Source: Apostichopus japonicus
Lineage: Eukaryota > Echinodermata > Holothuroidea > Aspidochirotida > Stichopodidae
NCBI RefSeq assembly: GCF_037975245.1
Contig: NC_092568.1
Span: 31,652,501 to 31,716,500, forward strand
Direction of reading: 5' to 3'
DNA length: 64,000 bases
In this document: piece after piece, positions 9,710 through 51,307 of the stretch
How positions within the stretch are numbered: the stretch's first letter is position 1
Layout of the letters: every line of letters begins with the position of its first letter
Translations under genes and position numbers: made by a program
Notes under the pieces: generated by a model
What the model was told of the DNA's origin: nothing
The model's input: the letters and a program-made list of their open reading frames with translations, nothing else
Databases searched by the model: none

Positions 9710-10380
9710 TGACACCCTTGAAAGTGTTGGCTTTGTTTGCTTGATTCAGCTTTTAAGTGAAAAGGATCGAAATTTTCTTTTGCGTGATTTCTTTCTAATA
9801 CCAGTTTCTAATACTACATATAAGCTAAGGATTGTGATGTCTTCTTACGTCTACTGATATCTCTTGAGATCTACTTGGGCGTTCTAACGTAACATATGGT
9901 CTAGTTATGCCTTCCGAGTCTTCTGATGTATCATATAGTGCCATCTAAGGTCTTCCAACGTCCTCTGATGTCTTTTATGGTCTTGTGATGTATTGTATTG
10001 TCATCTAGGGTCCTTCCTCACTTTACTAGCACAGTGAGTTTGATAACTTTGCGATGCTTAGCATGCTCAACTCTTTAACCCTATCGAAAAAGTATATGAT
10101 GTTAACCTTGGGTCGTGGCACTGATGTACTAAACCAGAATGCAAAATGCATTGAGGTTTCGATGACTTCAATGCACTAGACTTCTGCTTGTTAGTGTAAC
10201 CAGAAGTAGCTGTTACAATAACACTATGGCATGCTAACACAGGTCAGTCTACTGTACGTGGTTATACACACCTCCATCAAAAGCAATAGGGTTATTGTAC
10301 TCAATGTTATGAATACACACACCAAGTATTACAAAACCAAACCAAATCTCTAATAACTTCGCACATTAGGGTTGCAGAGG
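9710..10380. other. Gene-free stretch with degenerate GATGTCTTCT-type repeats
   Basis: Between about 9836 and 10020 the words GATGTCTT, TCTTCTGATGT, TCATCTAGGGTC and TCTAAGGTCTTCC recur every 20-30 bases, like a decayed minisatellite. Nothing coding is visible. Confidence 0.5.
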
Positions 10381-12010
10381 AGTCCACTTATGGACAAGTT
10401 AGATTGGAATATGCCCACGAAACTTCAAAGAATCAACTTGAAAGAAGCTAATACAGGTCACTGGAGGTCAACCTGAGGTCAAAGGTCACCCAAATGCAGT
10501 TCGACTATTGTATTACAATAGCGTAACTCTCAACCCTGTCAGTGGTAGTTTCACAAGTTATCGGGAAAAAACACATTTTGACCCATAAATGACCTTTGGT
10601 GACCTTGGATCACATCACGGTTATTTTTGAAAATGTGTCCCTACTTCATTCACAACTTGTCCTAATATACCAGCCATGTCAGACTTCGTGACTAGAAGTT
10701 GTTGCAAAAATTAGCATAAGTTGGGAGTTTTTGGCACTTAATCAACCTTGAATGACCTTGAATGACCTAATGGTTTTTATCAAAAATGTTCCTCTTGATG
10801 ATGTGCACTCTGTCCTAAAATCCCAACCTTGATGGACATATGGTTCTCACGTTATTGCAAAAATACTAGTTTTTGACCCCTAATTGACCTTTTTTGACCT
10901 TGGATCATATTACCGTTATGTTTTGAAACGATCCTTTACCCCATTCACAACTAGTCCCAAAATATCAACCATGTCGGACCCTGTTAGTGGTAGTTTCACA
11001 CGTTATTGAGAAAAACAACACATTTTGACCCATAAATGACCTTTGGTGACCTTGGATCACATCACGGTTTTTTTGAAAATGTGTCCCTACTCCATTTACA
11101 ACTCGTCCTAATATACCAGCCATGTCAGACTTTGTGACTAGAAGTTGTTGCAAAAATTAGCATAAGCTGGCAGTTTTTTGCACATAATCAACCTTGAATG
11201 ACCTTGGATGGCCTGATGGTTTTTATCAAAAATGTTCCTCTTGATGAGGTGCACTCTGTCCTAAAATTTGTTTGGCTTACAATATACACACATAATGTTA
11301 TTGCTAGAAATGTATCAAAACCAACCTTTGGCCCCTCATAACTTGAGAACTGGGTGTCCGATTGAAGCGGGAGTTGGTTTCCTATATTCAGCACAAAAAG
11401 CTCTATCATATGTCAACAAATTTTTAAACTTATCTTTGTTCTGTTTTGTTTTGCCCCGTATCTCCTAAAATGAGCATATTTTTTAAGATTTGACCTTTGA
11501 CCTTTTGACCTCGCGGTCAGATGTAGTTTGACACGCTGATTCCAAAAAGCAACATGACAAGTCTGTGCGACCATCCTAACTGTACTTATTAAAAAACAAA
11601 AACATTGACCTCTGATAACTTCGCACACGAAGGTCGCACAGGGGTCAACTATGGATCATTTTGATCGGAAGGTACCTTTGAGATCCGATTATGGCCACGA
11701 AAATTCAAATAACCCAAAAAACTGATAAAGGTCACCGGAGGTCAACCTGAGGTCAAAGGTCACCTAGATGCGGCTCGACTCCCTGATTACAATAGCGTAA
11801 CTCCCAACCTTCACGGACATTTGGTTCTCAAGTTATTGCAAAAATACTAGTTTTTGACCCCTGATTGACCTTTGTTGACCTTGGATCACATGACCGTTAT
11901 GTTTTGAAATGATCCCTTACCCCATTCACAACTGGTCCCAAAATATCAACCATGTCGGATCCTGTTAATGGGAGTTATTGCTTGTTTTAATATTTTGGTT
12001 TTTGGCCTCT
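10380..12010. repeat. AGGTCA-rich interspersed repeat with internal duplications
   Basis: The sequence is dense in TGACCT / AGGTCA words. The segment 10541-10822 recurs at about 10986-11262, and 10822-10995 recurs at about 11806-11970, each with few differences. AGGTCAACCTGAGGTCAAAG followed by GTCA occurs at both 10465-10488 and 11739-11762. No reading frame of note. Confidence 0.8.
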
Positions 12011-12169
12011 AACTGACCTTTGGTGACCTTCACAGGCAACACAAAAAATAGGGCACATCTACTCAATGTGGCACTCATATACACCAAATATTAGATTGGT
12101 CCAAGCTTCCCTACTTGAGATACCGTGTTTACAAGCCAGGCGTCACACACACACACACACCCATACATG

Positions 12170-13310
12170 TAAATGCCCTCAATCGGGGACCATATGTTGA
12201 TACTATGCAAGTGTGGACGTCTTCATATCAAGTTATTGTTTACAGGTTACAAGCGTACTTCCTTGATTGTTAATAAAACATTATGTAAATACCTGATTTG
12301 TTTATTTTTGTCATCATTTACGATCAATTATCATTATGTGATTTTCCACATGCAACTGTGGACATAATGAAAATATATTATCCAATCGTGGACACACAAT
12401 AATGTGTGTACTTTCCACATACCAACTGTGGATGCGAAGGTAATTCTATCCAATTGTGGACACATTAGCGTAGAGTTTTCCCAACTCTAACTGGGGACAT
12501 GTGTGCATAGCATCTGTATATGCCAGGTACTTGCAACACATGACAGCTCAAACCACCACCCTATAATTTCCGAACACAAACATTAGGAATAGTCATTATT
12601 TATTATCAAATACCAATATGTGATATTCCACAATTCAACTGTGGACATCATGGGAATACCGGACTATCCAATCGTGGACAGGGTATAGTGTGAATTAGCA
12701 CATTGCAACTGTGGACACAACGGGAAGGCAATCCAATGCTGGAAACACCGTAGTAGTTTTCCCAATTCTAACCAGGGACATGTTTGCATATCCTCCATAT
12801 GCAAGATATTTTTAACACGTGACAGCTCAAACCACCACCCTACTGTTAAAGGCATATTTTCTGTACATGTAAATAACACAAGTGCCACGTTAACATCATA
12901 ATTAGTCATCACTGGCGATCAACGTGATTTTCCATATCTCAACTGTTGAAATATTGACACTGAATACCGTACTATCCAACCGAGGACACGGTAGCTTATA
13001 GTACGGTGTTTTCCCATATCAACTGTGGATATGAATGAATACTATCCAACTGCGGACATGCTGTGTCTTTAGTGTGGAGTTTCCATATATTAACTGTGGA
13101 TTTGAATGAATACTATCCAATTGTGGACACAGCGTTTATAATGCGGAAGTTCCCAATGTCAACTATGAACTTAATGAATACCATCCAATTGTGGATGTGC
13201 ACACTTAAGCAGAGGGTTTTCCAAAATCTAAGCGGGGACGTGTTTGCACAACCTCTGGATATCACAGCTATTTGTAACATATGGCTGCCTAAAGCATCCT
13301 ACAAACATGG
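12170..13310. repeat. Tandem satellite of GTGGACA motifs, ~290-bp higher-order period
   Basis: TATCCAATTGTGGACAC alternates with CAACTGTGGACA throughout. A larger unit ending in AACTNNNGGGGACATGTNTGCA and CAGCTCAAACCACCACCCTA recurs roughly every 290 bases (ending near 12560, 12840 and 13290), making about three diverged copies. No coding potential. Confidence 0.75.
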
Positions 13311-14260
13311 AAGTATTACATTGCTGAAAGGTTTTATTTCTGTACATATATGTAACAGATAATCATTTGTTTGTCTAAACTATATTGAGCTGTAAACTTT
13401 TGTGTAGTTTAGAAAGACATATAAAACAGCTAACCAGTGAAGCCTCAGAAATTAATCTGACATTCTCATGACACAATCAGTGGCGGGGTCCAAGTCTACA
13501 AAATGTTAAAGCTCAGTAGGAAATAAAACATCTCTTCAGAATTAGGTTTGAGCTCCAATGTTGACCTTTACCGATGCAAAGAATCATGAAATGTACAGCA
13601 TAGACAAAAAACAATGTACAAATAGACAATAAACAATGTACAAATTGTTGTTCCAGTTCACATGTATTGTCATGTAATGCAGCTCCTTTAGAGTATTTAC
13701 CATATCTATAGAGACTTTACACATGGTAACGTCACATCTCACTTGTTCTTTGCATGTATGCACTGTGAACAATGCAGAGGCTTCTTAAAAAGTAAACTAC
13801 AATGAATCATACATGACAACACTATATTTGGGCCAATACAGCAGATCTACAAGTTGCAGAAAGTGACTTGTGGCGCTACATGCCTTCATCATTGTCGTAT
13901 GACCTGTTGCTATTCTATGTGAATAATTCATTACAGACCACAACAAGTATAGGCCTACCAACAGCAATAAAGTAGTAAGAGACATTATATGATATGCCAA
14001 CTATGCAAGCAAACACATGAACAAGCTCAGGTACAATGTCCCTTTAATATCTCACAAAAGTGAATCCTTGCTCAGGTTGGCAATCCATCAGCACAAGTCC
14101 TACTTGTATTTAATATTGAAGTAATGAGATAAACTACCACTTGTTGTCATGTTAAAGAGCAGGGTATGGTAACCACATACTAGGGCTATTCTTAAATGCC
14201 ACTTAATGAAACAAAATTAAAGTTTTTCACTTGGTGAACTTTATAACATTAAACTTCACT
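13310..14260. other. Gene-free stretch
   Basis: Only short frames below 70 codons are present. I see no domains, splice-linked exons or repeats that I can name. Confidence 0.5.
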
Positions 14261-14269
14261 TTAAAGGAA

Positions 14270-15985
14270 CAAATCTGCAATCCTGTCAACTTCAATTAGA
14301 GTAACGCACCCACCCCTCTCACTTTTCCACACCCCCCTCTAGAAAGTGACTGGTAAAATAAGTAAATAAAACAACTTGCTAAACTTTAAAACACTTTATC
14401 TTCAACTTTTGAAACATGTTATCTTTAACTTTAAAACACTAAAACTTTAAAACTATATAAACAACTATATAATCTTTAATTACAGTTAAGCACCCACCTC
14501 TCTTACTTCTCCACCACCCCCCCCCCTCCTCACACACTCCTTGCTTCACCCACCATATTGAAGGGATGATGCTATCACTTACAGATGAAACCATATCGTA
14601 TGCTTATTTCACAAACTATTTGTTCTTGTATTGATAACAATTTCACTGTAAAATTAAAAGGATATCTAGAAAGGTGACTGGTAAAATGTGTAAATAAAAC
14701 AACTTGCTAAACTTTAAAACACTTTATCTTCAACTTTAAAACATGTTATCTTTAACTTTAAAACACTTTAACTTTAAAACTATATAAACAACTATATAAT
14801 CTTTAATTACAGTTAAGCACCGACCTCTCTTACTTCTCCACCACCCCCTCCCCCCTCACACCCTCCTTGGTTCACCCATCATACTGAAGGGTTGAAGCTA
14901 TCACTTACATATGAAACCATATCGTATGATTATTTCACAAACTATTTGTTTTTGTATTGATAACAATGTGACTGTAAAATTAAAAGGATATCTAGAAAGG
15001 TGACTGGTAAAATGTGTAAATAAAACAGCTTGCTAAACTTTAAAACACTTTATCTTTAACGTAAAACATGTTTTCTAAACACTTTAACTTTAAAACTATA
15101 TAAACAACAACATTTACTTTAATTAGAGTTAAGTACCCACATCTCTCACTTCTCCACCATCCCCCCCCCCCCCTCCTTCACACCCTTCTTGGTTCACTTA
15201 CCATATTGAAGGGATGATGCTACCATCTACAAATGAAACCATATCATAGGATTATTTCACAAACTATTTGTTCTTGTATTGATAACAATGTCACTGTAAA
15301 ATTAAAAGGATATCTAGAAAGGTGACTGGTAAAATGTGTAAATAAAACAACTTGCTAAACTTTAAACACTTTATCTTTAATGTAAAACATGTTATCTAAA
15401 CACTTTTACTTTAAAACTATATAAACAACAACATTTACTTTAATTAGAGTTAAGCACCCACCTCTCTCACTTCTCCACCACCCCCCCCCCCCCTTCACAC
15501 CTTTCTTGGTTCACCCACCATATTGAAGGGATGATGCTACCATCTACAGATGAAACCATATCATATGATTATTTCACAAACTATTTGTTTTTTTGTTGAT
15601 AACAATTTCACTGTAAAATTAAAAGGATATCTAGAAAGGTGACTGGTAAAATGTGTAGATAACACACCTTGCTAAACTTTAAACACTTTATCTTTAACGT
15701 AAAACATGTTATCTTAACACTTTAACTTTAAAACTATATAAACAACAACATTTACTTTAATTAGAGTTAAGCACCCACCTCTCTTACTTCTCCACCATCC
15801 CCCCCTCCTTCACACCCTTCTTGGTTCACCCACCATATTGAAGGGAAGGGATGATGCTACCATCTACAGATGAAACCATATCATAGGATTATTTCACAAA
15901 CTATTTGTTCTTGTATTGATTACAATGTCACTGTAAATTTAAAAGGATATCTAGGACAAGTTGACTGTTAAAATGTTACTGGTAA
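14270..15985. repeat. Five-copy ~325-bp satellite
   Basis: The marker GTGACTGGTAAAAT starts copies at about 14346, 14679, 14999, 15322 and 15640, giving periods of 318-333 bp. Each unit has a TTTAAAACACTTTATCTT block, a poly-C block after CTTCTCCACCA, and GAAACCATATCNTANGATTA. Poly-C length and small indels vary between copies. It lies just beyond the 3' end of the SET/recombinase gene. Confidence 0.9.
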
Positions 15986-16235
15986 AATACTCCACCCATC
16001 ATTTTACTTATACATATTAACTACCAATACTATAATTGGTAAACTAATCATAGTGTATTACAAAATCACCATTGTCACCAACGCAACTGATAAACCTTTA
16101 ATGCATAAAACAACTTAAAAGGTACTCATCAATATAGACCTCAATGAATGCATCAAAGACTTGACTATTTGCATGTTAAGTTTTGGAAGGTCTTTCACAA
16201 TCTTTTTCTCTGGGATTGAGCAGGAACAAGAAGGC

Positions 16236-16241
16236 TTTATT
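16236..16241 (-). promoter_or_regulatory. Poly(A) signal of the SET/recombinase-like gene
   Basis: AATAAA on the minus strand, 61 bases downstream of the predicted stop codon (TAG at 16302-16304). The spacing is that of a normal short 3' UTR and supports this stop as the gene end. Confidence 0.75.
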
Positions 16242-16301
16242 TGAAAGAAAGTATAAGTGTAGTATATAGTAACAGTAATGCAAAGACCATGATCAAAGGT
16301 A

Positions 16302-16537
16302 CTATAGTGTCACAAAACTCAATGGATCGCTTTTTCTATTTTGGTTTCGAATGAAGTCTTTGATGTTCCTCCACGTCCTAGATTGTAGTGTTGGCTCAGC
16401 ATGTATAGCTGTCATGATCTTGTCTTTTCCAGGAAGATTGTTCTTTAAAAAGCAGCTCTTGAATATTCTTGCTACAACTTGCTTTTCTTCTGTGGTCCAT
16501 GGCTTCTTCGTTGTGTTTTGTTTTGTCTTCTTTACAC
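16302..16537 (-). CDS. Exon 6: C-terminal Myb/SANT-like domain
   Basis: The acceptor GATTGATCAG/GTGTAAAG gives, in phase, KKPWTTEEKQVVARIFKSCF, then LPGKDKIMTAIHAEPTLQ and RTWRNIKDFIRNQNRK, ending at TAG. The W-x4-E helix, the central PGK segment and the R-x-W-x-x-I-K-x-F-I helix look like a divergent Myb/SANT trihelical DNA-binding fold. The exon lies in an otherwise non-coding region and joins perfectly in phase, which is strong evidence that it belongs to this gene. Confidence 0.8.
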
Positions 16538-19500
16538 CTGATCAATTTAATAACATGTATATATAATGAGATTTATAAAAGATTGTGTGAAAGTTTTTTC
16601 ATGATCTTGTTGCAAATTGAAGTTCTCACACATTACAAAAGACAACTTGTAATAACCTTTAAAATTCACAATTGATAGCATTTGCATACCTTCACTTGCT
16701 TTGACCTTGGAGTCTGTGTAATCGGATGCAGTGGATGACACCGCAATAGTACTGTAATCATCTTCAACGTCTTCATCACGTGGGACCTCTGGAAAGTGGA
16801 TAATTGTTACCAATTAGCACATCATCATTAGTACTGTTTGGCAAAAAGTTTAGTTCAAATTATTTACAGTTACTTGCAATGCATGTGAGATCACTTCATA
16901 AAAGAAATTTAATGAAGTTCTTACTACCATGGCTGTTCGTTAGACAAAGGTGCAGCTTAAAGCTGAAGTGTTTCAATATCATGTTTAAAGGTCATCATTG
17001 AAATGACTGAACGCCGAGTTCTCATGTTCCAAGGCTAGACATTACAGTCACAAACTAACAGATACCTGATAAGCATTAATGCAGGTAGATAAATATGTGT
17101 TCAGATCAATTACACCTCTCTAATGTACTGATGAATAATGTAATGAAGGGTGTAATGATGGATTCTTCTAACATACAGGACAAATCATCGCTCTTCCCAT
17201 TACTACTTCGAGTACAGAATTTAATATAATAAAACAGTCTGCTGCTTTTTCCAACTAAAAACAAGAAAGTATTATCACCTTCATCAGGCTGTATTTGGAT
17301 TTCATCCAAGCTCTTTCCAACTACATTTTGGAGGTTGCCATTTTCTATGTTGAACAAGACTTTAGACACTTTTGCCACTTGCAACGTCTGATCAGGTAAT
17401 CTGTAGTATTCTCTGTGTGTCCTAATGTCGTGTCCCATGAAACGAGCAATGATGTCAAGTTCATTGTCTTTTAAGTTCATTATTTGGCAAACTGTCGCAA
17501 TGTGCTTGCGAAGGCTTGTCGATGTTACATACTCAGGATGGATCGCCCCACAATTCCTGGCATGTGTTCTAATCACATCAGGTCCTCTGATATGACCTTC
17601 ACTGTGCAATGTTGCAAAAATGTACGGATTTGTCTCCAAAACACCAGCCTCTCTTCTTCTCTGGTAGAGTAGATCCAATGCTTCCTTCAACTCGTTTGTC
17701 ATTAACACTGGAACAGTTCTAGTTTTCTTTCCGATTATCTCTACTCGCCACAGTACTTTGCATAGCTCCTGTTCCAATTTTGATAATCCTTCCACCGCAA
17801 CTCCATTACCACCCTTTGTGCATTTGGTTAGGTCTGATGTCGTCATTTTTGCAACTTCACCTGATCGCTTTCGGTTGAACACTATCAAGGAGGCGAGGGT
17901 CACTTCAGCTAGGTCTTTCCAGGTATGTTTTGCGTCATTTGGTTTACTTGTTGACTCATTCTTCAGTACATTCACTCCACATGCAACTTTGTCTTTGAGG
18001 TACTTGGTTAGTTTGACAATATCACTTGTGACTGGGAGGTACTTTGGTTCATTTCTCTTGTTCTCATTTAGAGTTCTCAAAGCATGCGTTGAAACAAGCT
18101 CTTCCCACTTCATGTTATACAGCTCAATAAAGGCTTTGCTTCGCTTTTCAAGGTCAAAATCACCTTTCATTAGAGCATCACCTTTTAAGATTTCTGCAGA
18201 CTTCTTCAGGCTGTGACCAATTTTTAGTGCTAGACTTGGTGTCTCATAAAGGTGGCTATCAGCATCAAAGCCTGATGTCTGGCGTGTGGCGTTTACAACA
18301 GCTACAAACTTCTTTGGATCGATCAAGTCGGTTAATGATGCATTACTTTCACCAGTCAATTGTCTGTATTCAACTACCATGCGGCCAACTTCTCTTAATT
18401 TCGTTCTAATATATGTATACTGGTCTTTATCATGACCAAGTTTCAAGGCAAGCTTTTCTGCCAGCTGTCTGGTTAACGTGTCTGCTTTAATGAAACGTGC
18501 AACGCCTTCCTCATCACATCTAAGACTCGAAAAGATTTCTGAAGTTATCTTGGTTAGGCCAAATTCAGGCAACATCATTTTCCCTTCTTTAATGTAATTC
18601 CTCCTCTTTGCTGGTTTTGCATTTTGTGCGCCTACATGCTTTCTAAATGGACAACGGTGTTTCCACAGATCACTTTTGGCATAATAGCCAAAGCAATCAC
18701 TGCATGGTAAGTAATCATCTGGGTCTGCCGTGAAATTTGGCCGGTAAACTGGAATCAAAACTCCTTGGTTTTCTTTCCTTACTTTTGCATTGTGTACAAA
18801 GTTTCCATAATTTCTCATTTTTGTAAGTCTTTTAGCCTTCAGCTCTGGATCTTTAGTTGCCAGCCATTGAATAACTTCTGGCTCATCCTTATGTTCCTTA
18901 AATTCAGAGAGATGTCGAGGCAATTTTGCTTGGCTTGTTTGGCAAAATGGGCAATATGCACTCTTATCATATTTCCTTTTTCTACCATTATTTGTTTGCA
19001 ACACCTGAATCCCACATGATCTGCTTGATGATGCTGAGTTACAACTGGTTTTTTCCTGAGAGCATTGGTTGATAATGTCTGATGAGCTGGATACACAATC
19101 AGTTTCTTCTTCACAGTTCTGTTTTGTATTGTGAGATGAACATTTTCTGCTTGAAGAGCTAGATACACAACCACTCCTCTGTGTGAATCGAGGTAAGGGT
19201 ATGACATAACTTTCTCCATCCTCAGAATAATCAGATTCAGGCACATAGTCATCACTATGAGAAGACTCAGATTCTGACTCACTGGTTGAGGCATCACTTT
19301 CAGAGACTTCATTGTCCATGACTAAGGAACATGTTTCAGGCCCTTTAGCAGGTATGTCCTGAGTCATGAGTTGAGAATCAATGGTTGAGGCATTGCATTC
19401 CAAGGAGTCCTCAGTGTCCATGATCAGGGAACGTATTTCAGATCCTATGTCTGACATATACTTTTCCAAAGAAAGTGGACTCTTTTCATTGAGTAATTGA

Positions 19501-22496
19501 GATGCATCTTTTAAAACGTTTTCAGTTTCCAAGTTCAGGACCAAAGAGCTTACTTCAGTATGCTTCATTGGAGTCTCTTTCATCAAAATCTTTGGTGCAA
19601 ACTTCATATCATCAGCAGTCATGGGTTGTGAATCAGATGTTAAAGCAGAGCTGTCTGAGGGGTCTTCAGGGTCCATGAGTAATGAACATATTTCAGGTCC
19701 TTCAACTGTTATGTCCTTGTCTGGAGATGATGATCCCTTTTTATTTCGTTCCGAAACAGTCATGGGTTGTGGGCCAGAGTTTAAGGCATTGCTGTTTGAG
19801 GGGTCCTCAGTGTGCATTACCGATGAACTTATTTTAGTTCCTATAGTTGATATGTCCTTTTCCTGAGATGATGATCTCTCTTCGTTTTGTTCATTAGCAT
19901 TCATGGGTTGTGAGTCACTAGTTGAGACATCGCCATATGAGGGTTCTTTAGTGTCCATCACCAACGAAAATGTTTCAAGTCCTTCAGCTGATATCTTTGT
20001 GGGAGATGATGATTCCTTCTCATTTTGTTCACTCTCAGTCATTGGTGTGGGGTCACTGGTTAATGCATTGCTCTCTGGTGAGTCTTCTGTGTCTATGACT
20101 GACGAAATTAACTCAGAGTGTTGATCTGTAACTCTCTTTTCCAGCGATGACAAAATATCCTTTTTGAGAGATGCTGATATCCCCGTTGCCACAGATGATG
20201 TTGATCCATTTTCATTATGTGCCTGTAATATTCAGCAAAGTTAGTATACATCCTTAAGTCTGAGTAATGTGAGTTCGTTCGGTGATGATCATAGTTTCAA
20301 CATAGTTTCACCTGACTGAATTATTGTCTGAGTTGATAAATCAGTCAGAACTACTTAATGCTGATGAATAAAGTCAATAACTTAAGAAACAAAACTCAAG
20401 TAGGTTGTTTCTTTACTGTCTGTCTACATTACCTGAGCACATTTTATATTATATTGACACAATCAGCATACATACACAGCAAATATTATAGATTATTCTC
20501 AAAGTGATGCAACTAAATGAGATGTCTTTGAATATCCTAGAAATTCAATTAAAAGTGAAAGACGAGTTGCAACGTTGATTGGTTCCATATATTTGCTCCA
20601 CTACTTTGCTGTATGAATGTGCTAAACACAAAGCCAGATAGCATATATACTATGGCAAACTATAAAGTTATAACTTTGGTGAGAACTATGTACAAAGTTA
20701 CCTATCTTACAGTTGAGCTGAGAATAGCTTCTTCATAATAATTAACATTATAATGAATACAATAAACAAAGCAAACTGACATGAAAGTAAACTTCATATG
20801 TTACTTCAAGCAACAACAAGAATATTAAAGAATAGCAAACGTTTTGAAACATTCACTTTCATGAAGTAGAAGACTACTTATACTGGGTTGCATTTTATTC
20901 ATAGAAAAGCAAAGGAATTTCTCACAAAGGTATTCTAGATTTAAAGTTGCAATGTGAAGTGTTGAACACTTGTTTCATTCTCATGATTCCCAGTAACAGA
21001 AGTCTTCCTTATGGTATAACCTCAATTTTTACCTTAGCTTGCTGCTTCCAGGGTAGATTAGACACACCGTAATCGTATAGCAGCTCCTCACCTTCTGCTA
21101 TGTCAGTGAGGGCAAAAAGGCATATTACTGGTGTGCCTTCAAAATCAAGAATAGATGGCTTCACGTTTACTTCATTTTTCTCTCCGTGGTTTACCAACCG
21201 TCCCAATATAGGCCCTGTCTCTCGTTCTTCTGTTGCATCAATACTATTTAAGAAAATAAGGTCCATATTATGAAATATCATCAAGTCTACTCTTGATTAA
21301 TCCTGTCACTTTAAGGATTAATAGTTTGATTAGAAGATGAGTGATTGTTGACATGTCACTTACTACAGACACAAATGTAAAACGTTAATGAAAACTCAAC
21401 AATTTCAGGATTACAATTTACTTCAGAGATTGGAGTTTGGGTTTCATTGCTTTGACTACTGTATAAATATGGAACAGCTAATATGTCTTCAGGCTTATGC
21501 ATGTGAATTATTTACCCATATTTGAACTGTTTAAACCACAAATTACATATGTTTAGTGCTATTATTTCTGTATTTGACCATGTTGACTCGACTGTAGTAC
21601 TAGAAGTATGCAGCAAACAATTTTGCATGCAAACAGTGTTTCAAATATATAGCATGCTGTTCAAGATGAATTGGCGAACTCCTTTACATTTGCACTCAGG
21701 CAGACAATTTAACAATTTGTTAAAGAGTAGAATAGTACATGTTCTCACAAAAGAATCATTTGGTATTCAACTCACCAGAACTCCTTTCCTTTACATGAAA
21801 TGAAAAATCTAAAGCCTGATGACCCTTCTTCCTCTTCAAGCTTATCTCCTTCATTAACTGACAGAAGTGACCCAGCATACTGCAGTAGAAACTCTCCTTT
21901 GGTAAATTTGACCTTCGCAAACACTCCTCTGCCTAGAACAGAGAAGAAAATCCAAGTTATTTTTTACAAAATTCACTGCTCATTCTATCAAGATCACTAG
22001 CTGCACCTTCCCAACATTCAACAAAATGAACCCAAATTGGGAAAGAGTTTCAAAACCACACAATTTCAAAACCCAGCTGTAAATTTTAATAGCCACTCAT
22101 TCTGTGCCTCAGTCGAAAGGGTGTGCAATAATATGCCTTCACACCACATCCATACTACTTGAACATCCAAGAAGAACATCTTTTCCTTAATTCTCCAATG
22201 ATCCTTTCCCCTCCTCGCCCCATTCTTCACTTAGGTTCATTGTCACTCTCCTGTTGTTTTCACTCACTATTTATGCCATTGCTAAATAGTCCTATGTTAA
22301 ATGTGAATATGTCACTACACAAACTTGTGGGTACTTCTGTCAAGGTATTCTTACTTTATTACAGCACAAGAAGTATAAAACTGAATTTGATACCTTTTTG
22401 TGGTATTTCTTTTACATAAAATCCATCTCTATCAGTTTTTCGTTTAACCATGGAAATGGCAACATCTTCTGGTTTCTCTCTTCTTTTCCTCCTCAT
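16302..22496 (-). CDS. SET-domain / tyrosine-recombinase-like / Myb-like fusion gene (six coding exons)
   Basis: Exons on the minus strand are 22496-22394, 21932-21776, 21243-21033, 20222-17279, 16788-16690 and 16537-16302. They total 3,750 bases and encode 1,249 residues. All five introns are GT-AG and all phases agree (1, 0 or 1). Domains in order are a KMT5A-type SET domain (about 28-150), an acidic/Ser repeat region (about 160-490), two zinc fingers (about 579 and 663), a tyrosine-recombinase-like domain (about 860-1100) and a Myb/SANT-like domain (about 1182-1240). The SET part suggests lysine methylation of a histone or other protein. The rest suggests nuclear DNA binding derived from a mobile recombinase. 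The start is the first ATG after the acceptor at 22509 and is followed by basic MRRKRREK. I recall similar multi-domain predictions in fish and invertebrate genomes, but no characterised function. Confidence 0.85.
16690..16788 (-). CDS. Exon 5: short acidic linker exon
   Basis: A 99-base exon between TTTCCAG and GTATGC, entering and leaving in phase 1. It encodes an acidic linker beginning EVPRDEDVEDDYST and ending KVKASEG. Being a multiple of three, it could be skipped without shifting the frame. It connects the recombinase-like domain to the Myb-like exon. Confidence 0.75.
17279..20222 (-). CDS. Large exon 4: acidic repeats, zinc fingers, tyrosine-recombinase-like domain
   Basis: One 2,944-base exon. 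It opens in frame after TATTACAG with AHNENGSTSSV and is not expected to start independently. The first 300 residues hold about six diverged ~48-residue repeats of the type SLVMDTEDPS..NALTSDSQPMT, then an Asp/Glu/Ser tract. Next come C-x2-C-x9-H-x6-H (CPFCQ..RH..KEH) and C-x2-C-x11-H-x-C (CSDC..KHRC). Recombinase boxes follow: NRKRSGEVAKM (box I Arg), GKKTRTVPV (Lys), TSLRKHIAT (box II Arg) and FMGHDIRTHREYY (His and Tyr). The usual His of the box II H-x-x-R is Thr here. The donor is GAAG/GTGATA at 17278-17277; reading through would add an unconserved tail to 17106. Confidence 0.85.
21033..22496 (-). CDS. SET-domain exons 1-3 of the fusion gene
   Basis: The joined exons give DRDGFYVKEIPQKGRGVFAK, then FLLQYAG, FCIDATEE, LGRLVNHGEKNEV and IAEGEELLYDYG. 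These align with the KMT5A (SET8) SET domain: G-R-G-V-F cofactor loop, C-V-D-A-T, G-R-L-I-N-H-S, and G-E-E-L-L-Y-D-Y-G. The cofactor-binding Asn-His and the catalytic YDY tyrosines are kept. As in KMT5A there is no cysteine-rich post-SET segment. The TTC TG/T ATT junction across the intron at 21244-21775 restores the conserved C-I-D-A-T, which confirms that splice. Activity is likely but target residue is unknown. Confidence 0.88.
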
Positions 22497-22857
22497 TTTG
22501 TGTGTCAACCTGAAAAAAATAATTCATTTAATTGCAGCATTTTCAAATTTACTTTTCACAGAAGTCATAATGTATTTTAGATTAGATTGAGGTACAGTAG
22601 TTTAAAGGTAATCCATATTTCTTCTTTTCCTGTAGAAAATGGTAGCTCATTCAAACACTCACTGCAGAACATGATGATAAAATGATGATAGAAGTGGGGA
22701 AAGTTAACAATATACTTGGATATTACTGTTACTAAATAAAAAAAAAAACTAGAGAAATCAAACTTTCGGAGGTAGTTTCAGCATCATCCCTAAATAAATT
22801 TCCTTCCTACTTATACAAACACAAGTGTACACAAGTGATGGGATACTATTTTCTTAC

Positions 22858-22974
22858 CAGGTTTGATGGCAACTTCAATGTATATTATCATCAAGTAGAC
22901 TATGATGATTATCAGACTGATGAGTAAGGCGGCTAAACTGATGACCAATGTCCATTCACCAGCACATTTCATTC
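22858..22974 (-). CDS. Candidate upstream exon with hydrophobic peptide (uORF or alternative N-terminus)
   Basis: A 117-base minus-strand stretch between TGCAAG and the strong donor CTG/GTAAGAA. It opens MKCAGEWTLVISLAALLISL and continues with a run of Ile/Val/Leu, a convincing single transmembrane or signal-anchor helix. If spliced to the exon starting at 22509, the frame ends after two codons (G, TGA) before the MRRK start, so it would be a 39-residue upstream ORF. Exon length divisible by three and phase 1 at both ends also allow it to be coding in another transcript. No cDNA evidence is available. Confidence 0.35.
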
Positions 22975-23760
22975 CTTGCATTGCAGAGAAAAAGAAGAAG
23001 AAATGGAAAACTCAAACAAAATCTAGTCAAACTGTACTACTATTAGGTCCAATTCATGTTAATACTAATATTATCTGAATAGAAACATCATTGCTAAATT
23101 AAGCTTGCCATGCAGTATTGTTCTATGCAAATACACATCCATTGAATTTTAGTCATTACAAATTTACCATTTGTCTATAAAGGGAACAAGCAATCTGAAG
23201 GGTAAAATCATTTTACATGGCAACCCCAGCACTTTCCATTTTGGCTGTATATTAAGTGTCAATACTCAATGTGTGATAGTGTTCTCACTGTATAGGACTT
23301 TAATATGCTAACTACAGGTGCTTGTTACTATCCATCTGACCAAAGACCTACGTACTGCTGGGTACAAATCTGTATTTCAGAAAATTAAAGGTATTTTACC
23401 TAGAGCTGTCTAAAATATAACTGACAATACATCTTTATTCCTATGAATACATGAACACTGTTATATGAACACTGTCAGTACAGTAGAAATGTATTCTTGA
23501 ACCAGCGGTTAAGAGTGGTATTAACCAGCAAAATCAGTGAACTGTGTTAGTTTGAACACACACATACCAAAGGCACACATCACACAGAAAGTTCATGCAG
23601 CAGATGGGAAAACATTCCTAGTTTAGACCTATGTACTGTAGTGTAGCCATGCAATTATTACATAATGAAAAGGTGAATATAGCTTAAACATTTAAAATAC
23701 AATAGTTAAGTGTTCCAATTTCCAATGAAACATCAACACTGTCAAGATTGACTATCTAAT

Positions 23761-25650
23761 AGGGGACATATATCTACAATAATGTACCATAGCAACACAA
23801 CACACAGATAGGTGAAGCAGCAAAAGGGAAAACTGTGCTAGTTTAGACTTACTGTACTGTATCCCAGGTAATTATTTGCTAATGAAACAGATTAATTGAC
23901 TTACCATTAAACATAAAATAGTTAAGCATTCCTGTAAACATTCCACAAAGTGAAAGATTGACTATCTAATAGGGGACATATATCTACAATAATGTACCAT
24001 AGCAACACAACACACAGAGAGGTGAAACAGCAAAAGGGAAAACTGTGCTAGTTTAGACTTACTGTACTGTATCCCAGGTAATTATTTGCTAATGAAACAG
24101 ATTAATTGACTTACCATTAAACATAAAATAGTTAAGCATTCCTGTAAACATTCCACAAAGTGAAAGATTGACTATCTAATAGGGGACATATATCTACAAT
24201 AATGTACCATAGCAACACAACACACAGAGAGGTGAAACAGCAAAAGGGAAAACTGTGCTAGTTTAGACTTACTGTACTGTATCCCAGGTAATTATTTGCT
24301 AATGAAACAGATTAATTGACTTACCATTAAACATAAAATAGTTAAGCATTCCTGTAAACATTCCACAAAGTGAAAGATTGACTATCTAATAGGGGACATA
24401 TATCTACAATAATGTACCATAGCAACACAACACACAGAGAGGTGAAACAGCAAAAGGGAAAACTGTGCTAGTTTAGACTTACTGTACTGTATCCCAGGTA
24501 ATTATTTGCTAATGAAACAGATTAATTGACTTACCATTAAACATAAAATAGTTAAGCATTCCTGTAAACATTCCACAAAGTGAAAGATTGACTATCTAAT
24601 AGGGGACATATATCTACAATAATGTACCATAGCAACACAACACACACAGAGGTGAAACAGCAAAAGGGAAAAACTGTGCTAGTTTAGACCTACTGTACTG
24701 TATCCCATGTAATTATTTGATATTGAAACAGATTAATTGACTAACCATTTAACATAAAATAGTTAAGCATTCCTGTAAACATTCCACAAAGTGAAAGATT
24801 GACTATCTAATAGGGGACATATATCTACAATAATGTACCATAGCAACACAACACACAGAGAGGTGAAACAGCAAAAGGGAAAACTGTGCTAGTTTAGACT
24901 TACTGTACTGTATCCCAGGTAATTATTTGCTAATGAAACAGATTAATTGACTTACCATTAAACATAAAATAGTTAAGCATTCCTGTAAACATTCCACAAA
25001 GTGAAAGATTGACTATCTAATAGGGGACATATATCTACAATAATGTACCATAGCAACACAACACACAGAGAGGTGAAACAGCAAAAGGGAAAACTGTGCT
25101 AGTTTAGACTTACTGTACTGTATCCCAGGTAATTATTTGCTAATGAAACAGATTAATTGACTTACCATTAAACATAAAATAGTTAAGCATTCCTGTAAAC
25201 ATTCCACAAAGTGAAAGATTGACTATCTAATAGGGGACATATATCTACAATAATGTACCATAGCAACACAACACACACAGAGGTGAAACAGCAAAAGGGA
25301 AAAACTGTGCTAGTTTAGACCTACTGTACTGTATCCCATGTAATTATTTGATATTGAAACAGATTAATTGACTAACCATTTAACATAAAATAGTTAAGCA
25401 TTCCTGTAAACATTCCACAAAGTGAAAGATTGACTATCTAATAGGGGACATATAATGTACCATAGCAACACAACACACAGAGAGGTGAAACAGCAAAAGG
25501 GAAAACTGTGCTAGTTTAGACCTACTGTACTGTATCCCATGTTATTATTTGCTAATGAAACAGATGAATATTACTTACCATTTAGCGTAAATAAGTTACA
25601 CATTCCTATGAAACGTCAACACAGTAAAAGATTGACTATCTGATAGGGGA
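23761..25650. repeat. ~210-bp tandem array (nine units) with higher-order AAB structure
   Basis: The marker AGGGGACATATA starts units at 23761, 23971, 24181, 24391, 24601, 24812, 25022, 25232 and 25443. The spacing is 210 or 211 bp and most units are over 95% alike. Units at 24601 and 25232 share the same variants (ACACACACAGAGG, CCCATGTAATTATTTGATATT). The last units therefore follow an A-A-B pattern with a 631-bp period. Diverged older copies flank the block to about 23540 and 26450. It lies in the presumed 5' intron region of the SET/recombinase gene. Confidence 0.92.
23905..23931 (-). other. Potential 27-nt microexon, repeated in every array unit
   Basis: The minus strand reads TTTACAG, then 27 bases beginning GAATGCTTAAC and ending TTTAATG, then GTAAGTCAATT. 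This is a complete acceptor, a short exon and a near-consensus donor. The same cassette recurs in the eight following units; in the units at about 24740 and 25370 the donor is GTTAGT. It is 27 bases long and phase-compatible with the exon at 22974. Use as an exon is only an inference. Confidence 0.3.
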
Positions 25651-26866
25651 CATATATCTACAATACAGCATCACAGGCACTGAACACACAGGAAGCAGTT
25701 CTAGTTTACATCTACTGTAGAAATGCAATTATTTGATAATTTAACAGATGAATATGAATTGCCATTTAGTGTAAAATATCATCACAGGCACACACAGAAG
25801 TGAACCAGCAGTTGGGAAAACTGTGCTAGCCTTTTAAACCTACTGTATTAATGCCATGCAATTATTTAATAATGAGACAGTTGAATATAACTTAAACATT
25901 TAACATAAAATAGTTGGTCATTCCTATGAATATCAACATAGTAAAGATTGACTATCTAATAGGGGTTGTATCTTCCAAACATTATCGTAGGAAAACAGCA
26001 AACAGAGGTGAACCATCAGGAGGGAAAATTGTGCTTGTTTAGACCTACTGTACTATAGCCCATGTAATTATTTAATGAGACAGGTGAAAATGACTTAACA
26101 ATTACCATAAACTAGGACATATATCTCCAATACTATAGCAACACAGTACACAGAGAGGTGAACCAACAGAAAGGAAAATTGTGCAAGTTTAGACTTATAC
26201 AAGTTACTGTACTGTATCCTTTGTAATTATGTGATATAGAGAGCAGATAAATACAACTTAATTACCATTTGGCATTGAATAGTTAAGCATTCCTCTACAC
26301 ATTCCACCAATTAAAAGATTGATTATCTAATAGGGGAGATACACATCCATTAATGTACCATAGGAACACAGAACATAGAGAGGTGAACCCACAGAAGGGT
26401 TCAGTGCTAGGCTGGTTTAGACCTACTGTACTGTAGCCATGTAATTATTTGATAAAGAAACGAGTGAAACAAACTACACTATGAATTCAACTTGCTGAAA
26501 AATACTAGGCCTGCACCTAGCTTCTTCAGTCTTATCTTTTCTAATCGCATTTAGAAAGTCCTACTTGATATATTTGAAATTCGAGGCCTAAAGCCTCGGC
26601 CAAAAATAGTCAATCAATGATAGCCTCAATTAGACTAGAGTTAGACTATGCCTAACAGTGATACTGATAGAGGCCGGCCACGGAAGTAGTAATAGTACTA
26701 ATAGTAATACTATTACTAGGCCTAGCCTTCAATGAAACTTAAAATACTAAGTTCTTACAATTAGAGTTAGGTAGCACTGTTATTTTCGGCTGACAGTGCT
26801 GCACATCGGAATCATATCAAACCGAGACACTCCAAAAAAAAAAAAGACATTCTGTTCATTACTCAC

Positions 26867-27120
26867 CGAATAACTGATGAGGCAAGCGTCTATAGACTCG
26901 TTGTAACTTGTGTAGTGCAGTGCACGGAACGGGTACGTAACTTGTAACATACAATCTTTGCTTGTAACAAAAACGCGCGCAAACACGCAGCTTGCCTGGA
27001 CCAACATACTGTGGAAGTGTATGAGGGCGCTGTTGATACACAATGTACTATTGACAGACATAACATACACACTGGATACACTGCAACATACGCTGTACGG
27101 TTCAATCGTGGACCAGCATT
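26867..27120 (-). other. Candidate first (5' UTR) exon of the SET/recombinase gene
   Basis: A non-repetitive minus-strand stretch, relatively richer in CpG than its surroundings, ends in the donor TTATTCG/GTGAGTAATG at 26867-26866. It lies upstream of the 210-bp array. No TATA box is evident. Frames through it are short and unrelated to known domains, so it would be untranslated leader. The transcription start is not determinable by eye. Confidence 0.35.
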
Positions 27121-27639
27121 ACAGGCACGAAATAATTAAATAGCGCCACTATTAGGTCCAAAATATACTGTTCCCATTGTAATAACAATCGGGGACCGTC
27201 CGCGTTTCCCGAGGCGTCCGCGATTGACGGGTGTGTATTCACATTTTCGTCCGCGGTTGAGGGTAATTGCTAACGCACACACACGCACACATACACACAC
27301 TCTCCGCCTGCATGAATGCATAGGTTACGATTTCATCGAAACCAAAAAGGAGAAGCCAACTATAGAAGGGTTTATTTTAAAAAGAGCCCAACAGGCACTA
27401 TGAGTCCTTCCTTAGTGGAATGTTAAAGTGTTGTATGTCATTACGCAGTTTCATGGAATGGACTCGACACAATTATTAAAAGTACTCGGCCCGAAAAATT
27501 GGGGCCGAGAGAATGTGTCCCAAAATGCATTTGAGGTGGAAATAAAATATGGGTCCACCCGGCCCTAAAACGGGCCCGAAATTTTGATGTTCCCAAAGCT
27601 TTCAGACCTACATGTACCAGGTATTCCAAACTCTAAGCT

Positions 27640-28456
27640 GGTGTTTCAGCCTAGATATAGCTTCTGCTCATAGTTTAAGCGAAAGAGATCGTTACCCTTG
27701 TGAGTAAAGTTGATACCGAGATATCTAATAGGAGCATTAGTAATCAAAATATTGAATTCACTGACATGAGCTGGATTATTTGAAATGAAAGGACCAAGGG
27801 GAAGAAACTGGGATTTGCTGAGATTAATTTTGAGACCTGATGCTAGTCGAAAATTCTCTAAGGGTATTCAGCACCTTAACAGTGCTGTTGCGGGTACCGT
27901 CTAAGAAGAATGGGGTGTCGCCGGCATACTGCAGTACTTCAATCTCCCGGCCAAATATGTTTATTCCCTTGACTGTGTTGGCACAAATATTTTTTTTGGC
28001 TAAAATATCTGCACATAGAATAAAGAGGTACGGGCTAAGGGGACAACCTTGCCTTACTCCTCTCTGAATAGGGAAGAAACCTGTCGAATGACCATTATTT
28101 AGAACACAGGAAAACTACCAGTGTAGAGTGTTTTTGATCCATCGTCGAAAACTGTTCCCAAAGTTGAAATAAATAAGAGTGTGGTCAATAAAATCCCAAT
28201 CGATACAATCAAAAGCTTTTTCTAAATCAATAAAGAACAAAAGACCCGGAATGTTATTTGTGGTAGTGTGATCGATTAGGTCCAGCACAAAACGAATTTT
28301 TTCCCCAATAAACTTATTTTTGATAAAACCAGTCTGGTTATCCCCAAAAGTATTGTCGACGACCCGTTTTAACCGGATAGCTACTGCTTTTGCTCCAATC
28401 TTGTAGTCAGTGTTAAGGATACTAATTGGTCTATAGTTAGCTATAACGTTATGCAT
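27640..28456 (-). pseudogene. L1/Tx1-type LINE reverse transcriptase fragment
   Basis: The minus-strand frame at 28456-28115 begins near NYRPISILNTDYKIGAKAVA and contains GLLFFIDLEKAFDCIDWDFI (motif A). A second frame continues with GVRQGCPLSPYLFILCADIL, then IFGREIEVLQYAGDT and, further on, SGLKINLSKSQFLPLG and RYLGINFT. The order is that of L1/Tx1-clade reverse transcriptases. Two or more frameshifts and stops break it. The catalytic YADD box reads YAGD, so an essential aspartate is lost. It has no endonuclease part here: a dead, truncated copy. Confidence 0.85.
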
Positions 28457-29490: not shown

Positions 29491-29577
29491 ACCTCTCTTC
29501 CACGACCAATTGTTGAACATCTTGTAAGATAGCATTCGTCTTGTCATATAATGTATGGTGTTACGTCGATACGAGCT

Positions 29578-29889
29578 ATCAAAGGGCGCTATCAAAGGGC
29601 GCTATCAAAGGGCGCTATCAAAGGGCGCTATCAAAGGGCGCTATCAAAGGGCGCTATCAAAGGGCGCTATCAAAGGGCGCTATCAAAGGGCGCTATCAAA
29701 GGGCGCTATCAAAGGGCGCTATCAAAGGGCGCTATCAAAGGGCGCTATCAAAGGGCGCTATCAAAGGGCGCTATCAAAGGGCGCTATCAAAGGGCGCTAT
29801 CAAAGGGCGCTATCAAAGGGCGCTATCAAAGGGCGCTATCAAAGGGCGCTATCAAAGGGCGCTATCAAAGGGCGCTATCAAAGGGCGCT
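29578..29889 (+). repeat. Perfect array of twenty-four 13-bp units (ATCAAAGGGCGCT)
   Basis: 312 bases made of exactly 24 identical copies of ATCAAAGGGCGCT. Because 13 is not a multiple of 3 and the unit has no in-frame stop, all three plus-strand frames stay open and encode the same 13-residue repeat (GAIKGRYQRALSK). The array ends 287 bp before the start codon of the intact LINE ORF and may be part of that element's 5' UTR. Complete identity indicates very recent expansion or active homogenisation. Confidence 0.95.
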
Positions 29890-30176
29890 GCTCCGCGGCA
29901 GCCAGGACTTACGAGCTCTCGCAAATTTTCAAGTTTTTAACTACAATTGGACTCATCCAGTCTGCAGTCGTTATATATCTAGTAGCTTCCAAGGTGGTGA
30001 AGGATATTATCACTCCACTCAGAACTTTCGGAGGTAATTGCATCAAAACTGGTCTGTTTTATCTGTAAACTTTTTCATATCCTTTAGCCTAGCCGCCTGT
30101 TTGCATTACGTGTGTACACGTACATATCATCACGTACAGCGTACAATACGCGGGGAATCAATTATTGTTTGACACT

Positions 30177-50350: not shown

Positions 50351-50458
50351 AAGTTACAGGTAATTTGCCTTTCTATGCTAAATTGAGGAGTCTAAAGTAA
50401 CTTTTATACGAAAATTGTATTGACATCTTTGTATATATCGTGTTTATTTTCCAGCAAA

Positions 50459-51307
50459 ATGGCATCGCATAGTGATTTGGTTGAAAAGGCGGTAAAGGTG
50501 GTTTTGGAAGACATCAGGAAGTATGCTCCTGAGGAATACAAGAAACTGAATGCAGAACCAGCCATGAAAGAGAGGATTATCCTAGCCGCGACAGAAACGG
50601 CTGAAGAAAGCCTGTTGCTTACCGATGAGTTGCGCAACCAGCCTGAAGACATCGCTGCACTACTCAGCAAGCATCTCTCCGACGAAAGAATTCAGCTAAT
50701 TCGAGGAGGGCTTGAGATTCCCACTTTCCGATTGGAAATTGCAAAGAGAGATGACGAGAAGCACTGGTTGGAATTTACCAGGGAAGGAAAACAGTTTCTA
50801 CCCTCGCGAGCAATTTCAACAGCTCTTGATGTCGATTGGGGAAGCGCCATGCAGTTGGGCAGCATCTTGGTTGAGGCCATTCTTCTCGTCATGTCTGCCG
50901 TCGGGATCTCGCCATCTCCAAGTGGAAGAGGGGTAGAGCAGGCGCTCAAGGAAGCAGCTAAAGCGATCGAAGACAGCGCAAAACTGCAGAAGGCTCTAAT
51001 AGATTTTGGTACAGCTTGGGATTCAGCAGACAGTGCCATTGGTAAAGCTAGAGCACTCTTCTTTCTTATCGTGGATATCAACTCATCTGCGGTTATTTGG
51101 ACCATCATCAAAGCTCTGTTTTACAACATAGGATGGTTTGATTGGCTGTTGACTGCTGCGAAAGTTACTGCTATGATTGTAGTAGTTGTCGGAACAGGCG
51201 GGGCTCTTCTGATCGCTGAAGCCGCCATCATTGTGCTGGATGCAGTAGCTTTTGCACGTAAGATTGCCAACGTAATCCTGCTTTCCGAAATAAAGAAAAC
51301 CCTTTAA
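50459..51307 (+). CDS. Unrecognised 282-aa protein with hydrophobic C-terminal helices
   Basis: A single coding exon. TTTATTTTCCAG ends at 50454 and CAAA separates it from the ATG, so the leader is probably spliced and this is the real start. The protein begins MASHSDLVEKAVKVVLEDIR. Residues 1-90 are charged and helical. A central segment has TFRLEIAKRDDEKHWLEFTR and VDWGSAMQLGSILVEAILLV (first hydrophobic helix, about 120-145). An alanine-rich amphipathic stretch follows, and residues about 205-275 form two or three further hydrophobic helices (IIKALFYNIGWFDWLL, AMIVVVVGTGGALLIAEAAI). There is no signal peptide. AATAAA overlaps the stop. I do not recognise the family. A soluble N-terminus plus late hydrophobic helices would suit a membrane-inserting or channel protein, but that is inference only. 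Confidence 0.8.
   Translation: MASHSDLVEKAVKVVLEDIRKYAPEEYKKLNAEPAMKERIILAATETAEESLLLTDELRNQPEDIAALLSKHLSDERIQLIRGGLEIPTFRLEIAKRDDEKHWLEFTREGKQFLPSRAISTALDVDWGSAMQLGSILVEAILLVMSAVGISPSPSGRGVEQALKEAAKAIEDSAKLQKALIDFGTAWDSADSAIGKARALFFLIVDINSSAVIWTIIKALFYNIGWFDWLLTAAKVTAMIVVVVGTGGALLIAEAAIIVLDAVAFARKIANVILLSEIKKTL

What the first reader, a model, noticed from the sequence alone, without database searches (positions are those of the whole stretch)
16302..22496. SET methyltransferase, zinc fingers, tyrosine recombinase and Myb-like domain fused in one gene
Splicing by eye joins six minus-strand exons, all GT-AG and phase-consistent, into a 1,249-residue protein. A KMT5A-like SET domain with intact motifs is fused to a tyrosine-recombinase-like domain that keeps Arg, Lys, Arg, His and Tyr, and then to a Myb-like domain. 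A recombinase-derived targeting module that delivers a lysine methyltransferase would be an unusual domestication, or the gene could be part of a mobile element that carries its own chromatin modifier.
Basis: partly seen in the sequence, partly recalled or inferred. Interest (0 to 1): 0.85.

Follow-up and report, generated by a model that had tools for sequence, protein, structure and literature searches.

The report
Jumping gene carrying a histone methyltransferase
In a sea cucumber, a 17-kilobase piece of jumping DNA encodes one protein that joins a DNA-cutting type of recombinase to a histone-type methyltransferase, so the element appears to move with its own chromatin-modifying enzyme.

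Summary
Six GT-AG, in-phase minus-strand exons give a 1,249-aa protein: KMT5A-like SET, two C2H2-like fingers, a tyrosine-recombinase (YR) domain whose predicted structure matches XerH and Cre, and a C-terminal Myb/homeodomain-like domain. The genome is Apostichopus japonicus (sea cucumber).
It is not a lone host gene but the only gene found in a 17,217-bp mobile element, window 10132-27348. The gene region has three near-identical copies on other places or contigs; one (C19) shares both borders. Four of four paralogous sites lack the element exactly. The left terminus recurs at 39 other places. A 2.1-kb derivative is the element with its interior deleted. Old copies are broken. YR catalytic residues (except one His) are nearly invariant in 121 proteins, 31 with detected SET.
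Best reading: a YR DNA transposon whose transposase is fused to its own lysine methyltransferase. SET genes in other transposons and YR transposons were known; their fusion was not found in six capped literature searches. SET function is inferred, and NCBI's model omits the SET exons.

The parts
10132..27348 (-). whole mobile element, 17,217 bp (gene on minus strand)
   Evidence: both borders shared with the copy C19:453430-470246; 4 of 4 fetched paralogous sites are empty
10132..10174 (+). left terminus AACCAGAATGCAAAATGCATTGAGGTTTCGATGACTTCAATGC, with GGTTTCGAT motif at 10155
   Evidence: 39 of 39 other matches that run to the query's end start at query 25-34, i.e. window 10124-10133; 13 of those 39 junctions were fetched and show the border
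27323..27348 (+). right terminus GGTTACGATTTCATCGAAACCAAAAA: imperfect inverted repeat GGTTACGAT/ATCGAAACC, then A5
   Evidence: identical in C19, C17 and L073-L077 (5 of 5 fetched), with different flanks
22394..22496 (-). exon 1 (start codon, start of SET)
21776..21932 (-). exon 2 (SET)
21033..21243 (-). exon 3 (SET: RLVNHG and ELLYDYG motifs)
17279..20222 (-). exon 4: acidic/Ser-rich linker with ~141-bp repeats, two C2H2-like fingers, tyrosine-recombinase domain
16690..16788 (-). exon 5 (acidic linker)
16302..16537 (-). exon 6: Myb/homeodomain-like domain and stop
22811..23011 (-). open stretch upstream of exon 1; a possible 5' exon judged by eye (AG before, GT after)
   Evidence: unproven
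14343..15976 (.). tandem array of about five ~320-bp units, inside the element
   Evidence: families D5, D11, D19
23565..26412 (.). tandem array of ~210-bp units, inside the element
   Evidence: D2, D4, D6, D7
10523..12030 (.). ~150-bp repeats near the left end; kept in the 2.1-kb derivative
27345..27625 (.). target repeat to the right of the insertion (first 4 bases overlap the element's A run); paralogues give the empty sites

Best explanation
The gene is the transposase of a 17.2-kb tyrosine-recombinase DNA transposon, a young, multicopy family in Apostichopus japonicus. Inferred mechanism: the YR domain, helped by the zinc fingers and the Myb-like domain, binds the terminal motif GGTTWCGAT, takes the element out or copies it as an end-to-end joined form, and inserts it without target duplication at a short A-rich site such as CAAAA. 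It also moves 2.1-kb deletion derivatives in trans. The KMT5A-like SET domain, delivered to the element or the target by the same protein, methylates a lysine on nearby chromatin (H4K20 is the first guess), most likely to counter silencing of the element or else to bias where it inserts. Shown: element, borders, empty sites, copies, derivative, predicted fold, conserved catalytic residues. Inferred: which protein acts on which end, the joined intermediate, the SET activity and its purpose.
For: Near-identical copies of the gene region, introns included, at C8:7.75 Mb, C19 and C14 (99.5%, 98.5%, 97.0% over 7-9 kb). C19 shares both borders against unrelated flanks. Paralogous empty sites, 4 of 4 fetched. 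Left end at 39 other places, one of them the C19 copy; 13 of the 39 junctions read; right ends of five more copies, 5 of 5. Internal-deletion derivative on C17: 10128-12167 (97.6%), 11 bases, then 27277-27348 (98.6%). A head-to-tail junction at C7 (L064). GGTTWCGAT occurs three times in 64 kb counting both strands, all within 26 bp of the two ends. YR fold and near-invariant catalytic residues. Copy at C8:7.75 Mb has an intact 1,249-aa frame. Fewer changes in exons than in other bases of the gene region: 4/3750 v 12/2650 (P 0.009) and 13/3750 v 22/2651 (P 0.015). Older copies carry stops. SET detected in 31 of 121 family proteins, motifs present.
Against: No transcript was seen joining SET and YR exons here, and the database model omits SET. 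The second catalytic His is Thr, so strand exchange is not certain. No activity, circle or binding was tested. Only one insertion has empty sites. The C8:7.75 Mb copy, closest in the gene, has another right-end sequence and a diverged left part (87.5% over 80 bp, then a break to about 11594), so ends and gene do not share one simple history. C14 lacks both ends. 90 of 121 relatives show no SET, at least partly because they are split models or single exons. Relatives in other species were not tested for mobility.
Confidence: 0.82

Rival explanations
1. Domesticated host gene: a lysine methyltransferase uses an old recombinase domain only for DNA targeting.
For: The same architecture is found in echinoderms, a mollusc and teleosts; exons change less than other bases.
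Against: Young copies elsewhere with borders and empty sites, decayed older copies, and conserved catalytic Arg/Lys/Arg/His/Tyr. Crypton-derived DUF3504 domains lack most catalytic residues (PMC3212892, abstract).
Confidence: 0.06
2. Passenger: the gene is cargo in an element moved by another protein.
For: The 2.1-kb derivative exists in many places without the gene, so the ends can be served in trans.
Against: No other open frame of 113 aa or more was found in 10132-16300 and 22600-27348 (a spliced gene of small exons could be missed), and the gene itself encodes a recombinase.
Confidence: 0.08
3. Segmental duplication or assembly artefact rather than transposition.
For: Homology extends over about 17 kb, and the C14 copy lacks both ends.
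Against: Same ends against unrelated flanks in many places, empty sites cut at exactly those ends, and an internal-deletion derivative.
Confidence: 0.02
4. Integrated virus or virus-derived element (YR integrase plus host-like SET).
For: Phage and some eukaryotic-virus integrases share the fold.
Against: No further frame of 113 aa or more in the element outside the gene span; a scan of viral contigs gave 60 pattern hits and 0 confirmed relatives.
Confidence: 0.02

Closest known systems
Crypton DNA transposons (CryptonA of animals; PMC3212892, abstract and sections 5 and 8 read)
   Same: DNA transposon with a tyrosine recombinase; non-autonomous derivatives more abundant than autonomous ones (section 8)
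   Different: Section 8 says animal Cryptons have no C-terminal domain and that no terminal repeats were found; this one has N-terminal SET, C-terminal Myb-like domain, six coding exons, 17 kb, and a terminal motif in inverted order. Kinship of the YR domains was not resolved
SET-carrying transposons: HarbingerS and MuDR of Phytophthora (PMC12730594, passages), Helentrons (PMC4067079, passages)
   Same: mobile DNA that carries a SET methyltransferase
   Different: other transposase types (DDE type recalled; Rep/helicase in passages); in the Helentron the SET is a separate frame
SETMAR (primate SET-mariner fusion; recalled; named in a table seen among passages of PMC2200798)
   Same: SET joined to a transposase domain
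   Different: domesticated gene with a DDE transposase (recalled); here a young multicopy element with a tyrosine recombinase
Starship elements of fungi (recalled; papers seen in search listings only)
   Same: large elements with a tyrosine recombinase
   Different: fungal, many cargo genes; relation to this YR not tested
Tn916/Tn1549-type integrases and integron integrase (fold only)
   Same: YR fold; end-to-end junction and lack of target duplication are reminiscent (recalled biology)
   Different: bacterial; no sequence kinship shown

Membership tests
KMT5A-type SET lysine methyltransferase | SET domain with its conserved motifs | tested here: met
   Pfam E 1.7e-16, KMT5A best in PDB E 6.6e-22; GRGVFA, RLVNHG, ELLYDYG present. 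The roles of the motifs are recalled; NHS of KMT5A reads NHG
KMT5A-type SET lysine methyltransferase | H4K20 monomethylation | not testable with these tools
   needs an enzyme assay
Tyrosine recombinase | fold | tested here: met
Tyrosine recombinase | six catalytic positions (R, K, H/K, R, H/W, Y; recalled) | tested here: inconclusive
   five of six kept in 120 or 121 of 121; the third is Thr in 118 of 121
Crypton | DNA transposon with YR and no reverse transcriptase found | tested here: met
   (frame scan only)
Crypton | sequence kinship with Crypton/DUF3504 YR | tested here: inconclusive
   DUF3504 is not among the 25 families listed for 20 members, a capped list; Phage_integrase in 3 of 20, best E 5.5e-4; no Crypton profile was compared
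Crypton (animal) | no C-terminal domain and no terminal repeats (PMC3212892, section 8) | tested here: not met
   C-terminal helical domain; terminal GGTTWCGAT motif in inverted order
DIRS/Ngaro YR retrotransposon | reverse transcriptase | tested here: not met
   no frame of 113 aa or more outside the gene span in 10132-27348; Pfam finds only SET in the protein
SETMAR-type domesticated gene | single-copy host gene | tested here: not met

The most novel reading that the evidence does not exclude
A separate superfamily of animal tyrosine-recombinase DNA transposons, with relatives in echinoderms, molluscs, a nemertean and fishes, whose transposase is built with its own histone lysine methyltransferase, so that each insertion writes a chromatin mark on itself or its target. 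The extra domain is exchangeable (OTU or BRCT instead of SET in two relatives), and SET and YR halves have recombined among lineages.
Probability: 0.45. Interest if true: 0.85.

Novelty: new variant of a known kind. Interest (0 to 1): 0.74.

Why it matters
It offers a natural case of a recombinase and a chromatin writer in one protein, in a family young enough to have an intact second copy, deletion derivatives and empty sites. It makes testable whether a transposon can set its own chromatin state. It could also explain a set of 'uncharacterized' or KMT5A-named proteins in fish and echinoderm databases as transposases, and gives a source from which SET-DNA-binding host genes could be born.

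Tried and rejected
Viral origin: a viral-contig scan with the YR alignment gave 60 pattern hits and no confirmed relative. DUF3504/Crypton by Pfam: not among the 25 families listed (capped) for 20 members. The right end of the C8:7.75 Mb copy at first looked like a compensatory hairpin change; the C7 junction has the same kind of right end (GGTTCCTT...AAGGAACC), so I take it as a second end type. Whether the A5 after AACC belongs to the element or to the target was not settled: it is present at 9 right junctions (window, C19, C8:7.75 Mb, C17, L073-L077), absent at the C7 tandem junction and AAAT in the diverged C12 end, while the window's empty sites hold CAAAA(A/G). SET-exon groups B (5 copies, 99.75-100%) and C (4 fetched of 5 seen, 99.3-100%) are young and lie on several contigs, but 5 kb and 4 kb downstream of one copy each held no YR match, so they are not counted as members. 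Genome-wide YR copy number and pattern counts of both ends were not obtained (tool busy). No structure was made of the SET domain. Fold matches of the C-terminal domain are middling only. Support values of the two trees were not looked at.

Literature: six searches, listings of at most 20 papers each out of 35, 64, 3, 38, 97 and 14, showed no paper on a SET-YR fusion or on this element. Opened: PMC3212892 (outline with abstract, sections 5 and 8), PMC2200798, PMC6431247, PMC12730594 and PMC4067079 (passages only). No bioRxiv library was held, and most subscription papers are missing.

Full report
Observation. The six exons are splice-consistent units and give 1,249 residues. The only Pfam hit up to E 1 is SET. 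The SET part is closest to KMT5A/SETD8 among solved structures. The recombinase part, invisible to Pfam in this protein, was folded from a 52-sequence alignment (pLDDT 85) and matches XerH best, then integron integrase, Cre and Tn1549 integrase; phage integrases lead among viral models. In an alignment of 121 proteins (the best 120 listed of 535 hits, plus this one) R943, K989, R1062 and Y1097 are kept in 120 (Y1097: the other has a gap) and H1088 in all 121, while the second catalytic His position is Thr in 118. The C-terminal part forms a confident small helical domain of homeodomain/Myb type, with middling matches only.

Species and relatives. The best database protein is a nearly identical Apostichopus japonicus model of 1,032 aa that begins inside exon 4 and lacks SET. 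Contig lengths given for three other A. japonicus proteins (P0015, P0016, P0036) equal those of C2, C7 and C6 of the window's assembly, which fixes the species. Among 121 family proteins, 27 show SET, fingers, YR and Myb; 4 show SET, fingers and YR; 52 fingers, YR and Myb; 38 fingers and YR (the last classes include pieces from split gene models or single exons). Named members with SET come from sea cucumbers, sea urchins, sea stars, the mollusc Solemya and many teleosts; oysters and a nemertean appear without detected SET. Of 20 members scanned, 10 carry SET, one BRCT, one OTU. SET and YR trees of 23 proteins agree broadly (distance correlation 0.70, 0 of 2000 permutations as high), yet the window protein sits with A. 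japonicus P0015 and a Holothuria protein in the SET tree and with sea urchin and sea star proteins in the YR tree (support values not examined). Front and back modules seem to have been exchanged.

Mobile element. The window lies at C8:31652501-31716500 of a 671.6-Mb assembly in 35 contigs. A DNA search with the gene found full-length copies at C8:7.75 Mb and C19:0.46 Mb and a nearly complete one, in two pieces, at C14:25.89 Mb, introns included. Homology runs far beyond the gene, from 10132 to 27348 for C19. At both limits window and C19 become unrelated at the same base. The C14 copy lacks both ends (12145 and 26171 are its limits). The C8:7.75 Mb copy, the closest in the gene, has a different right-end sequence (GGTTCCTTGC...GCAAGGAACCAAAAA) and a left part that is mostly diverged before about 11594, though it keeps GCATTGAGGTTTCGATGACTT. 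So ends and gene need not share one history.

Empty sites. The sequence just right of 27348 belongs to a repeat. Four of its paralogues were fetched, and in 4 of 4 the two flanks of the element are continuous...GTACTA-CAAAA(A/G)-GAGAAGCC..., against GTACTA|AACCAG...GAAACCAAAAA|GGAGAAGCC with the element. There is no duplication of target; at most the short CAAAA run is shared.

Family of ends. About 770 bases of the left end match 39 other places at 95-98% up to the query's end, and 39 of 39 begin at query 25-34, that is window 10124-10133; one of the 39 is the C19 copy (40 of 2,793 first-look candidates were scored and the list is cut, so this is a lower bound). Thirteen of the 39 junctions were fetched: all share the terminus (12 AACCAG, one GACCAG) and have different flanks. 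At C17:1.519 Mb the element is about 2.13 kb: window 10128-12167 at 97.6%, 11 bases, then 27277-27348 at 98.6%. It is an internal-deletion derivative. Right ends of five more copies, 5 of 5 fetched, carry the same GGTTACGATTTCATCGAAACCAAAAA before unrelated flanks. At C7 one copy's left end abuts another element's right end, head to tail. A diverged relative at C12 has GGTTACGATTATCATCGAAACC at the same place. GGTTWCGAT is found three times in the window, at 10155, 27323 and 27335 (minus strand), all at the ends, and is the natural candidate for the recombinase site.

Age and selection. Against the C8:7.75 Mb copy, 4 of 3,750 exon bases and 12 of 2,650 other bases of the gene region differ; against C19, 13 of 3,750 and 22 of 2,651 (Fisher P 0.009 and 0.015). 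The C8:7.75 Mb copy reads through; C19's frame was not properly tested; C14 has gaps of 1 and 3 bases in exon 4. More distant copies at C8:39.69 Mb and C2:10.60 Mb match exon 4 only in pieces, with stops in several of them; dN/dS by piece runs from 0.25 to 1.80, and is 0.73 and 0.81 in the two longest pieces at C8:39.69 Mb; the one C12 piece has no stop and 0.64. Young copies, one of them intact, beside decayed older ones fit a transposon.

What it does. As no other frame of 113 aa or more was found in the element outside the gene span, its transposase is best taken to be this protein. The recombinase explains the clean insertion and the head-to-tail junction. The SET domain keeps its motifs, so it is probably an active lysine methyltransferase. 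That it acts on chromatin at the element or target is inference; relief of silencing and choice of insertion site are the two leading purposes. I place anti-silencing first, by analogy with other transposons that carry chromatin enzymes (PMC12730594, passages).

Comparison with the known. YR DNA transposons (Cryptons) and SET genes inside HarbingerS, MuDR and Helentrons are described. I found no description of their fusion, in six capped searches of open papers. Kinship to Cryptons at the YR level was not resolved, so I call it a new variant and not a Crypton.

Noticed in passing
window 30093-32906 (+): Open frame of 937 aa that reads like a non-LTR retrotransposon (endonuclease and reverse transcriptase, by eye).
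   Followed up: no
window 46306-48728 (+): Further retrotransposon-like frames, broken into several pieces (by eye).
   Followed up: no
window 50396-51307 (+): 303-aa open frame with a possible start at MASHSDLVEK and a hydrophobic second half; not searched.
   Followed up: no
window 29497-29964: 13-bp minisatellite array with many exact copies.
   Followed up: no
window 27623-28450: Another dispersed repeat, more than 20 matching places at 76-96%.
   Followed up: no
L048-L052 (C13, C16, C9): SET-exon group B: five copies 99.75-100% alike over 1.2 kb. Its second SET exon is nearer to teleost family members (60% over 65 aa, 58.6% over 70) than to the window protein (37.7% over 69), though a 25-aa piece of the window SET matches at 60%: possible horizontal transfer or old lineages. 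No YR match within 5 kb downstream.
   Followed up: partly
L053-L056 (C1, C9, C11): SET-exon group C: four copies 99.3-100% alike; no YR match in 4 kb downstream of one.
   Followed up: partly
G000:C13:9229189, 9269216, 9309243: Three SET hits spaced exactly 40,027 bp apart: large tandem units or an assembly repeat.
   Followed up: no
P0030, P0080: Family members with BRCT or OTU domains and no detected SET, suggesting exchangeable extra domains; positions not checked.
   Followed up: no
L064 (C7:20557620-20557780): Head-to-tail junction of two elements with a second type of right end (GGTTCCTT...AAGGAACC), like that of the C8:7.75 Mb copy.
   Followed up: partly
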